Shown here: piece after piece, positions 1-1,733 of the stretch
Position numbering within the stretch: position 1 is the stretch's first letter
Layout of the letters: every line of letters starts with the position of its first letter
Source: a virus
IMG/VR virus record: IMGVR_UViG_3300012964_000010
Coordinates: 1 to 64,000 of that record
Length of the DNA stretch: 64,000 nucleotides
Direction: 5' to 3' (one strand)
Position numbers and translations under genes: made by a program
Notes under the pieces: model-generated
Seen by the model: only the letters and a program-made list of their open reading frames with translations
The model's database searches: none
What the model was told of the DNA's origin: nothing

Positions 1-122
1 ATAACGATATTGTGGGGTGGGTAATTGTTGTTTGTATGTTGGAAATCTCGGAAAATTGGTCCGAATCCGACAGCAAGTTGATTTAGACGATCAAACATAT
101 GATCAAAGTCGCTCTTAGGCAT
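1..122 (-). CDS. hsp20: Small heat-shock protein (Hsp20/IbpA-like), N-terminal part
   Basis: The gene is cut by the left window edge; only about 40 N-terminal residues are visible. They contain an acidic, aromatic start with FDHMFDRLN, then FGPIFRDF and NYPPHNIV, the order seen in IbpA-type Hsp20 proteins just before the alpha-crystallin domain (YPPYNI in the family). Hsp20 proteins hold unfolded clients in an ATP-independent way. The start ATG at 120-122 follows AAGGAG at 7-8 bp. It lies downstream of bS21 and ClpX, and its leader looks like an RNA thermometer. The assignment is firm for the family, but the core domain is outside the window. Confidence 0.75.
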   Translation of the reverse strand, partial: MPKSDFDHMFDRLNQLAVGFGPIFRDFQHTNNNYPPHNIV

Positions 123-211
123 AATTTACTCCTTTATTAAGCAAGTTTTGTGCTATTAACACAGTTTTGCGGATATTACCGCGGCGTAAGACCCCACCAT
201 GGGCATCTTAC
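123..211 (-). promoter_or_regulatory. Structured 5' leader of hsp20, ROSE-like RNA thermometer candidate
   Basis: Read on minus, the leader holds four consecutive hairpins: GTAAGA/TCTTAC with an inner CCC/GGG (186-211), GCGG/CCGC (169-182), TGTG/CACA (149-163), and a last one (128-146) pairing ACTTGCT with AGGAGT around loop TAATAA. The last hairpin locks up the whole Shine-Dalgarno. TTGCT pairing with AGGAG across a G is the signature of ROSE thermometers that control ibpA-type genes. The predicted transcript start from the late box at 217-224 falls at the foot of the first hairpin. Function is inferred from structure and from the gene it precedes. Confidence 0.6.
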
Positions 212-216
212 AAAAT

Positions 217-224
217 TATTTATC
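217..224 (-). promoter_or_regulatory. T4-type late promoter box before hsp20
   Basis: GATAAATA on the minus strand, with a transcript start expected about 6 bp downstream (around 211), giving a leader of about 90 nt for hsp20. Same octamer as in front of the structural genes of this genome. Confidence 0.5.
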
Positions 225-250: not shown

Positions 251-511
251 TTAATAATTTCGGTCTTTGTGCCAATGACCAGAAGTAATCATTTCTTCTA
301 CTTTTCTTTCCCAGCGCTTACGAGCCTGTTTCTTTAGTCGTTGACGAGCAACAGCCGGCTTCTCGTAGGCCATCTTTTCTTTAACTACCTGCAAGGTTCC
401 GAGATCCTGCACTTTTTTAGAAAATGTTCTAAGAGCTCTGCCAAAATCATCTCCGCGAACTTCCACTGTCATGCCCCTGGTTCTTCTTGAATCCCTATAT
501 CTATTACTCAT
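251..511 (-). CDS. rpsU: Ribosomal protein bS21 homologue
   Basis: An 86-residue basic protein. From residue 15 it follows bS21: MTVEVRGDDFGRALRTFSKKV, then a helix rich in Lys/Arg with RLKKQARKRWERK. bS21 sits on the 30S platform near the anti-Shine-Dalgarno and helps initiation. Phage-encoded bS21 homologues are known from aquatic phages and are thought to replace the host protein. The C-terminus (MITSGHWHKDRNY) is longer than the bacterial core. The start overlaps the clpX stop, so translation is probably coupled. Family assignment is solid; the role in redirecting host translation is inference. Confidence 0.85.
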   Translation of the reverse strand: MSNRYRDSRRTRGMTVEVRGDDFGRALRTFSKKVQDLGTLQVVKEKMAYEKPAVARQRLKKQARKRWERKVEEMITSGHWHKDRNY

Positions 512-1733
512 TATTTGCTCGTTTCTTTATCTTATAAATGTTTTTTGTATTACCATCACCATCGATTACAATTTTAGTTACACCAGCCTTAGCTAAAGAT
601 GGTAACACAAATTGTGTAGCCTGAAGATCCTTCTCCATGATCGTTCTTAAACCTCTTGCACCGACCTTCTGTTCCAGACATTTAGCCGATGTGTTTAATA
701 GGTATTTATCATCAAACTCGAGAGTTATGCCCTCGTATTTGAACAAAGCCTTAAATTGACTTACTAGGCTATTCTTCGGTTCTTTAAGAATTCTAACCAT
801 TATATCCGGTGTTAGATCATCAAATACAACAGTAACAGGACAACGACCCACAAACTCCGGAATAAGACCATATTTAATGAAATCTTCTGGTGTAACTGAT
901 TTAACTGTATCTGAGAACGATGATTTAACGCTTAATGTTGCACCTATACCCATGCTTGTCTTGGTGCGATTTTTTCTAATAATCTCATCTAATCCTACAA
1001 ATGCACCGCTAACAATAAACAATACATCCTTTGTATCAAAATCAATTGATTCTCCAAACTCATCAGATATTTTAACAACAGTACCTTCAATCATTTTTAA
1101 GAGGGCCTGCTGTACACCTTCGCCGGAAACATCTCTTATTACTGTAGATGTCTCACTCTTTCGACTCTTCTTATCAATTTCGTCGATAAAGATAATACCA
1201 TGCTGTGCAAGCTCGATATCGTCATCGGCATTTGAAATAAGACGTGCAATAAGATTTTCAGCATCTTCTCCGACATACCCTGCTTCGGTTAAAGTAGTAG
1301 CATCTGCAATAACATAAGGAAGATTAAATAACTTAGCAATAGTCTTAACTGTCAATGTCTTTCCAGAACCCGATGGCCCAACCATTAACACATTGGATTT
1401 CTCAATTTCAACATCTTTCGTCTTGTTATAAATGCGTTTGTAATGATTATAGATTGCAACCGAAAGTGCAATTTTAGCAGAATCCTGTCCGATAATATAA
1501 TCATCAAGGTGTGCCTTAATTTGTTCAGGAGTAAGAATCTTTTCTTTTTTCTTCTTTACATCTTTCTCTGGTTCTTCCTTGTGAAGAATCTCATAACTGA
1601 AGTCTACGCATTCATTGCAGATATATAGTGGTTTTCCATCTTGTATCGGTCCTTCGATCATATGTTCGACCTGGTTTCGATCTTTATTACAGAATGAACA
1701 CTTGATGTTTTTGTCTTCCATATTATTTCCCAT
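504..1733 (-). CDS. clpX: ClpX-like AAA+ unfoldase
   Basis: 409 residues, close to bacterial ClpX length. The N-terminal zinc-binding domain has CSFC near residue 12 and CNEC near 39. The AAA+ module shows Walker A GPSGSGKT, pore-1 loop GYVG, Walker B IIFIDEID, arginine-finger PEFVGR and sensor-2 GARGLR. These are all the parts needed to unfold protein substrates. The loop that in ClpX carries the ClpP-docking tripeptide (GIGFGA in E. coli) reads SMGIGA here, so IGF is not preserved. It starts at a TAATG overlap with the upstream membrane protein and ends overlapping bS21. It probably remodels host or phage proteins and may act without ClpP. Confidence 0.92.
   Translation of the reverse strand: MGNNMEDKNIKCSFCNKDRNQVEHMIEGPIQDGKPLYICNECVDFSYEILHKEEPEKDVKKKKEKILTPEQIKAHLDDYIIGQDSAKIALSVAIYNHYKRIYNKTKDVEIEKSNVLMVGPSGSGKTLTVKTIAKLFNLPYVIADATTLTEAGYVGEDAENLIARLISNADDDIELAQHGIIFIDEIDKKSRKSETSTVIRDVSGEGVQQALLKMIEGTVVKISDEFGESIDFDTKDVLFIVSGAFVGLDEIIRKNRTKTSMGIGATLSVKSSFSDTVKSVTPEDFIKYGLIPEFVGRCPVTVVFDDLTPDIMVRILKEPKNSLVSQFKALFKYEGITLEFDDKYLLNTSAKCLEQKVGARGLRTIMEKDLQATQFVLPSLAKAGVTKIVIDGDGNTKNIYKIKKRANNE

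What the first reader, a model, noticed from the sequence alone, without database searches (positions are those of the whole stretch)
123..224. ROSE-like RNA thermometer controlling a phage hsp20
Seen: after a late promoter box, the leader carries four consecutive hairpins, and the last pairs ACTTGCT with AGGAGT, hiding the full Shine-Dalgarno with an unpaired or G-G pair in the middle. Known: ROSE elements upstream of bacterial ibpA-type genes use UUGCU against AGGA with exactly this kind of weak pairing. Inferred: the phage kept or acquired a heat-sensing leader, so its Hsp20 output would rise with temperature during late infection. RNA thermometers on phage genes are little described.
Basis: partly seen in the sequence, partly recalled or inferred. 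Interest (0 to 1): 0.82.

Follow-up and report, generated by a model that had tools for sequence, protein, structure and literature searches.

The report
Phage heat-shock gene's ROSE-like RNA switch
The RNA leader in front of this phage's small heat-shock gene hides its ribosome-binding site with the same weak hairpin that bacteria use as a thermometer, and the same switch turns out to sit in front of nearly every phage copy of that gene examined, ocean cyanophages included, apparently unnoticed until now.

Summary
On the minus strand a late-promoter box (224-217) is followed by four hairpins. The last pairs ACUUGCU with AGGAGU around an unpaired G, directly before hsp20, which the contig end cuts off after 40 codons. 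The window leader alone is weak evidence: Rfam's best hit is ROSE_2, 16.8 bits against a threshold of 65 (E 0.64), and computed melting does not discriminate. Comparison decides it. Excluding loci chosen by the motif, 78 of 82 distinct phage hsp20 leaders carry U(U/C)GCU opposite the Shine-Dalgarno (SD), against 3 of 337 other SD-bearing ORFs. Hairpin 1, with a bulged G, covaries strongly; so does the pair flanking the SD core. A covariance model from phage leaders gives a single hit per positive phage genome, at hsp20, in cultured cyanophages, Pelagibacter and Methylophilales phages, and finds the proven thermometer of Pseudomonas aeruginosa ibpA. Several phage dnaK genes carry it too. This is a widespread phage branch of the ROSE-like class, behind phage promoters. 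Temperature response, and possible self-repression by Hsp20 as in E. coli IbpA, remain untested. The literature searched names only three phage RNA thermometers, none reported as ROSE-type or on hsp20.

The parts
217..224 (-). Phage late-promoter-type box GATAAATA driving hsp20
   Evidence: 16 GATAAATA sites on the minus strand of the window, many just upstream of predicted virion genes; same box at a fixed distance from hairpin 1 in relatives
186..211 (-). Hairpin 1, stable 5' hairpin with bulged G204
   Evidence: 7 of 11 pairs change on both sides in the window clade, 10 of 11 in the wider set; bulged base is G in 138 of 166 leaders
169..182 (-). Hairpin 2, accessory
   Evidence: Predicted fold; absent in the shortest relatives
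149..163 (-). Hairpin 3, accessory
   Evidence: Predicted fold; absent in many relatives
128..146 (-). Hairpin 4, ROSE-like: ACUUGCU (146-140) against AGGAGU (133-128), G142 unpaired; sequesters the Shine-Dalgarno
   Evidence: Predicted fold; motif geometry in 78 of 82 leaders not chosen by the motif against 3 of 337 other SD-bearing ORFs; flanking pair covaries
129..133 (-). Shine-Dalgarno AGGAG of hsp20
   Evidence: Read directly
1..122 (-). hsp20, IbpA-like small heat shock protein, 5' part only (40 aa; contig ends)
   Evidence: Translation; 78% identity over 36 aa to the full-length relative in L007; relatives match Pfam HSP20 and NCBIfam IbpA best

Best explanation
The leader is a ROSE-like translational switch on a late-transcribed phage hsp20. 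Shown by sequence comparison: a phage late-type promoter lies next to a stable, covarying 5' hairpin, and a weak 3' hairpin pairs U(U/C)GCU with the Shine-Dalgarno around an unpaired G; this arrangement is conserved in front of almost all phage hsp20 genes examined and some phage dnaK genes, and it matches the proven P. aeruginosa ibpA thermometer. Inferred: in the cool or unstressed state hairpin 4 blocks ribosome entry, and warming opens it, so late hsp20 mRNA is translated according to protein-folding stress. Hsp20 may also bind its own leader and repress it until titrated by aggregates, as E. coli IbpA does. The phages keep the ibpA-type RNA switch but use their own late or sigma-70-like promoter in place of the host heat-shock promoter.
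For: Motif geometry in 78 of 82 phage hsp20 leaders not chosen by the motif, 3 of 337 in other SD-bearing ORFs. Hairpin 1 covariation: 26 double-change cells against 8.1 shuffled; 118 against 36 in the wider set. SD-flanking pair A-U/U-A/C-G paired 70% against 36% shuffled, 0 of 2000. Phage-trained model finds held-out cultured phages, betaproteobacterial ibpA, P. aeruginosa ibpA at E 3e-5, and weakly E. coli ibpA/ibpB; one hit per positive phage record. Rfam ROSE_3 sub-threshold hits on phage leaders. Proven mechanism in the closest relative (PMC3669281).
Against: No Rfam ROSE model reaches its threshold on any phage leader. ViennaRNA melting does not separate phage leaders from shuffled ones (it also barely separates the proven E. 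coli case). With coding sequence included an alternative fold competes with hairpin 4 in the window. No temperature measurement. The window's hsp20 is truncated.
Confidence: 0.8

Rival explanations
1. The leader is mainly an autorepression and aggregation sensor: phage Hsp20 binds the leader and blocks its own translation, and aggregates formed during late infection titrate Hsp20 and release the mRNA. Temperature is secondary.
For: E. coli, C. neteri and V. harveyi IbpA repress their own mRNA through the leader; R93 and an aromatic residue at 34 are needed (PMC10474464). Phage Hsp20s have R93 in 157 of 167 and Y or F at 34 in all 167.
Against: K98, needed in E. coli, is mostly S, Q or T in phages. 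dnaK genes with the same leader would need repression in trans. R93 may be kept for chaperone structure. No binding data.
Confidence: 0.35
2. The hairpins serve only to protect the 5' end of a late mRNA and to set a fixed, low translation level; there is no sensing.
For: Hairpin 1 lies where the transcript should begin; 5' hairpins can stabilise mRNAs, as proposed for the Pseudomonas hairpin I (PMC3669281).
Against: Does not explain an invariant U(U/C)GCU with an unpaired G, its restriction to hsp20 and dnaK, or the match to a proven thermometer. Other genes behind the same promoter box lack it: one model match in 127 kb.
Confidence: 0.12
3. Chance resemblance in an AT-rich leader.
For: For the window alone: Rfam ROSE_2 E 0.64 and a modest folding z-score.
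Against: Covariation, near-universal occurrence before hsp20, 3 of 337 background, single genome-wide hits.
Confidence: 0.01

Closest known systems
Pseudomonas ibpA short ROSE-like thermometer (Rfam ROSE_3, RF02523; PMC3669281)
   Same: Two-hairpin core: a 5' hairpin with UGCC...GGG and a bulged G, then U(U/C)GCU against the SD with an unpaired G; IbpA-type gene; found by the phage-trained model at E 3e-5.
   Different: Phage promoter instead of the heat-shock promoter; hairpin 4 predicted weaker (-2.0 against -6.3 kcal/mol at 37 C); zero to two extra hairpins; phage leaders score below the Rfam threshold (best 34.1 against 43).
Enterobacterial ibpA/ibpB ROSE (Rfam ROSE_2, RF01832)
   Same: U(U/C)GCU/SD hairpin in register with the start codon; window scores 16.8 bits end to end.
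   Different: Different upstream hairpins; far below the threshold of 65; phage model finds E. coli ibpA and ibpB only weakly (18 and 19.5 bits).
Rhizobial ROSE (Rfam RF00435)
   Same: Multi-hairpin leader with the same SD motif on small heat shock genes.
   Different: No phage leader matched RF00435, and model R2 did not find the four rhizobial leaders tried.
E. coli IbpA self-regulation (PMC10474464)
   Same: IbpA-type protein with R93 and an aromatic residue at 34, and a ROSE-like leader.
   Different: K98 mostly not conserved in phages; no binding or repression test done.
Known phage RNA thermometers: lambda cIII, SP-beta blyA (fourU), a sigma-70 gene of a gut Caudoviricetes (fourU) (PMC10586365, PMC11182007)
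   Same: Temperature-responsive phage mRNA leaders.
   Different: Different motif classes and genes, single cases; the lambda cIII element lowers expression at higher temperature.

Membership tests
ROSE-like RNA thermometer class (literature definition) | 3' hairpin with U(U/C)GCU imperfectly paired to the Shine-Dalgarno | tested here: met
   Window 146-128; 78 of 82 leaders not chosen by the motif; flanking pair covaries
ROSE-like RNA thermometer class (literature definition) | Unpaired or bulged G in that hairpin | tested here: met
   G142 has no partner in the predicted hairpin; the G of U(U/C)GCU is invariant in motif-bearing leaders
ROSE-like RNA thermometer class (literature definition) | Two to four hairpins with a stable 5' hairpin | tested here: met
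   Four in the window, two to four in relatives; hairpin 1 covaries
ROSE-like RNA thermometer class (literature definition) | Located in the 5' UTR of a small heat shock (IbpA-type) gene | tested here: met
   hsp20 in the window (truncated) and full length in relatives
ROSE-like RNA thermometer class (literature definition) | Translation rises with temperature through melting of the SD hairpin | not testable with these tools
   ViennaRNA accessibility not informative; needs reporter and probing experiments
Rfam ROSE_2 (RF01832) | Score at or above the gathering threshold of 65 bits | tested here: not met
   Window 16.8 bits, E 0.64
Rfam ROSE_3 (RF02523) | Score at or above the gathering threshold of 43 bits | tested here: not met
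   Not listed for the window; best phage leader 34.1 bits, E 0.0018
Rfam ROSE (RF00435) | Score at or above the gathering threshold of 45 bits | tested here: not met
   No hit to any phage leader, while two rhizobial controls hit
IbpA-type autorepressed mRNA | R93 and an aromatic residue at position 34 of the protein | tested here: met
   157 of 167 and 167 of 167 phage-set Hsp20s; position 93 is missing from the window's truncated protein
IbpA-type autorepressed mRNA | Cationic residues at 97 and 98 | tested here: inconclusive
   R or K at 97 in 156 of 167; 98 mostly S, Q or T
IbpA-type autorepressed mRNA | The protein binds its own leader and represses translation | not testable with these tools
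   Needs purified protein and a reporter mRNA

The most novel reading that the evidence does not exclude
Phages of cyanobacteria, Pelagibacter, Methylophilales and possibly methanotrophs share an RNA-controlled chaperone regulon (hsp20, sometimes dnaK) in which a ROSE-like leader behind a phage promoter couples chaperone synthesis to the folding load of virion assembly, through Hsp20 autorepression as well as temperature: an infection-stage proteostasis sensor rather than only a thermometer.
Probability: 0.3. Interest if true: 0.88.

Novelty: new variant of a known kind. Interest (0 to 1): 0.76.

Why it matters
hsp20 is a core gene of marine cyanomyoviruses with no agreed role (capsid scaffolding and host survival have been proposed; PMC3037559, PMC7674155). 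A conserved SD-hiding leader on that gene argues that phages need Hsp20 made on demand rather than at a fixed level, and makes this testable in cultured phages such as P-SSM2 or S-SM2. It would add a widespread group to phage RNA thermometers, of which the literature searched names three. It also shows an RNA switch being kept while its promoter differs, and would put a temperature-dependent chaperone step into phage infection in natural waters.

Tried and rejected
Rfam gathering search of the window and of 20 relatives: no ROSE hit. In-silico melting with ViennaRNA: nearly flat, and barely changing for the proven E. coli thermometer too, so not used as evidence either way. MAFFT alignment of distant leaders (A3) misaligned hairpin 1, so the covariance model was built from the window clade and then iterated. 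The hairpin-1 search that maximises pairing is circular for pairing, so only the identity of the bulged base and the shuffle comparison were read from it. Chance: rejected. Generic late-leader element: rejected, one model match in the 127-kb record although the promoter box recurs 16 times in the window. Protein tree for the direction of transfer between phage and bacteria: bacterial proteins form two supported clades among phage ones on an arbitrary (midpoint) root, so origin is left open. The record named Pseudomonas phage Y7 appears to hold the P. aeruginosa ibpA locus and was used as a bacterial control only. Pattern hits without hsp20 or dnaK downstream mostly gave no model match. A search of bacterial genomes by class could not be run with a locus as centre and was replaced.

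Full report
What was checked. The window is bases 1-64000 of a 127,320-base virus record, and the finding lies at its very start, on the minus strand. Reading down from base 224: GATAAATA (224-217), hairpin 1 GUAAGAU-G-CCCA/UGGG-GUCUUAC (211-186), hairpin 2 (182-169), hairpin 3 (163-149), hairpin 4 ACUUGCU/AGGAGU (146-128, G142 unpaired), ATG at 122-120. The frame encodes 40 residues and then the contig ends. The fragment is too short for Pfam. Its identity rests on full-length relatives: L007 is 78% identical over 36 residues, and the relatives are Hsp20 proteins whose best NCBIfam model is IbpA, below that model's cut-off.

The window alone is not decisive. cmscan at gathering threshold finds nothing. 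With a permissive threshold on 400 bases the best hit is ROSE_2 RF01832 at 16.8 bits (threshold 65), E 0.64, but it covers the whole model in register with the SD and start codon. The leader folds better than 198 of 200 shuffles; adding coding sequence weakens this and displaces hairpin 4 in the predicted minimum.

Relatives. A ClpX scan of viral contigs gave 67 loci, 16 of which carry a clear hsp20 relative with the same leader. Promoter box, hairpin 1 and the U(U/C)GCU...GGAGU hairpin are constant; hairpins 2 and 3 come and go. A scan with the Hsp20 alignment found at least 580 relatives, 80 loci kept, across distant phages. In three sets not chosen by the motif, U(U/C)GCU followed by the SD at the right spacing occurs in 12/12, 54/55 and 12/15 distinct leaders; the last set is named phage records, after leaving out a P. 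aeruginosa fragment filed as phage Y7. The exceptions are L139; Pseudomonas phage Cassandra (UUGCG), which model R2 still finds; Salicola phage SCTP-2 (CUGCC), which model R1 still finds; and ACG-2014e (motif present, SD changed), also found by R2. Among 349 SD-bearing control ORFs in the same loci, 15 have the geometry: seven are further Hsp20 genes that escaped the filter, five are phage dnaK, and three look like chance, that is 3 of 337. A DNA-only pattern scan of viral contigs also landed mainly on IbpA-like hsp20 genes.

Structure evidence. In 21 window-clade leaders, 7 of 11 pairs in hairpin 1 change on both sides; 26 cells change on both sides against 8.1 in shuffles, and sliding the partner by one base drops pairing from 91% to 54%. 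In 39 more diverse leaders it is 118 cells against 36; that alignment was fitted to the structure and leans towards it. Hairpin 4 is nearly invariant and so mostly silent, but the pair just outside the core, next to AGGAG, is mostly A-U, U-A or C-G and is paired in 70% of leaders not chosen by the motif against 36% when shuffled (0 of 2000). The best-scoring bulged hairpin upstream has G as the bulged base in 138 of 166 leaders, whereas in shuffled leaders G is the rarest.

Family model. R1, from the window clade, finds hsp20 leaders in distant phages (Melnitz 49.4 bits, E 3.8e-8) and several phage dnaK leaders, and has one match in the window's own record. R2, from 39 phage leaders, finds held-out cyanophages (S-SM2, P-SSM2, P-SSM4, S-ShM2, Syn19, S-SKS1, S-CAM1 and others), Pelagibacter phages, Melnitz, Phosso and Cassandra, six betaproteobacterial ibpA leaders, P. 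aeruginosa ibpA (33 bits, E 3e-5), and weakly E. coli ibpA and ibpB. Over whole records it gives a single hit per positive phage record, at hsp20 where the position was compared, and one per bacterial genome in seven of nine; one genome has two, and one bin has seven. With stricter filters it missed Phosso, Cassandra and SCTP-2 there. In 775 kb of ClpX loci the weakest hit (L022, E 0.14) is the only one I could not place at an hsp20 start. Other phage leaders also reach Rfam ROSE_3 RF02523 below threshold (Melnitz 34.1 against 43, E 0.0018; L107 E 0.007; L115 E 0.011), while four bacterial controls score above threshold in the expected families.

Promoters. In the window GATAAATA occurs 16 times on the minus strand, many just upstream of predicted late genes such as the tail tube. 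Among 137 phage-set leaders with a G-bulge hairpin, 78 have TAAAT(A/T) upstream, 73 of them 7-13 nt before the bulged G, against 3.7% of random 32-mers; several others show TTGACA/TATAAT-like boxes in the same place. Betaproteobacterial ibpA leaders have a CTTGAAA-type motif upstream instead (calling it sigma-32-like is my reading). So promoters differ while the RNA is kept.

Mechanism. Proven ROSE-like leaders block the SD at low temperature and open when warmed, the second hairpin melting while the first stays closed (PMC3669281). By homology I expect the same here. The window's isolated hairpin 4 is predicted weak (-5.3 kcal/mol at 15 C, -2.0 at 37 C; P. aeruginosa -6.3 and E. coli -4.6 at 37 C), which would fit a set-point below enteric temperatures, but that is inference, and computed SD accessibility does not separate phage leaders from shuffled ones. 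A second signal is plausible: E. coli IbpA represses its own translation through R93 and an aromatic residue at 34 (PMC10474464), and Hsp20s of the phage set keep R93 in 157 of 167 and the aromatic residue in all, though K98 is mostly lost. The two signals are compatible; dnaK leaders would need regulation in trans under the second.

Known and new. ROSE-like leaders are known from bacteria. The phage thermometers named in the literature searched are lambda cIII, SP-beta blyA and one sigma-70 gene (PMC10586365, PMC11182007). Nine literature searches found nothing on ROSE elements in phages or on leaders of phage hsp20; subscription papers and preprints were not searchable. I therefore rate it a new variant of a known kind: a widespread phage branch of the ROSE-like class. 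It is not a member of the Rfam ROSE families as currently drawn, and its thermometer function is inferred.

Noticed in passing
L093:457-533, L094:378-458, L109:394-478, L120:383-469, L147:438-496, L220:1394-1457: Six phage dnaK genes carry a ROSE-like leader; L093 has TATAAATA, then a bulged-G hairpin (TGTAGGATGCTTCGGGTTCTACA), a second hairpin and ACTCGCTTATTAAAGGAG directly before the ATG.
   Followed up: partly
L274 (OQ572409.1, Pseudomonas phage Y7): A GenBank record labelled as a phage seems to hold the P. aeruginosa ibpA gene with its own ROSE_3 thermometer, so it is probably host sequence.
   Followed up: partly
L287, L288, L289, L292, L293, L294: Betaproteobacterial ibpA leaders have the same two-hairpin ROSE-like architecture and are found by the phage model; the two that reached ROSE_3 in Rfam were below its threshold.
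   Followed up: partly
G008 (genome behind L291, a Rhodobacteraceae bin): Seven model hits in one bacterial bin, probably because phage contigs were binned with it.
   Followed up: no
L286 (Methylococcaceae MAG contig of 3.9 kb): A contig binned with a methanotroph carries a window-clade hsp20 and leader behind the late-promoter box; it may be phage DNA and a hint at the host.
   Followed up: no
window 251-1733 (minus): A ribosomal protein S21 gene and a ClpX gene (409 aa) lie directly upstream of hsp20; the clpX-S21 pair is shared by relatives, while hsp20 can lie several kb away.
   Followed up: partly
L278:1-82 (P-SSM2): Rfam manA RNA (RF01745) match, cut off at its 5' end, about 450 bases upstream of hsp20.
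   Followed up: no
L100:50-455: A tmRNA gene, matching both the permuted and the betaproteobacterial tmRNA models, with a cluster of tRNA genes on a phage contig near hsp20.
   Followed up: no
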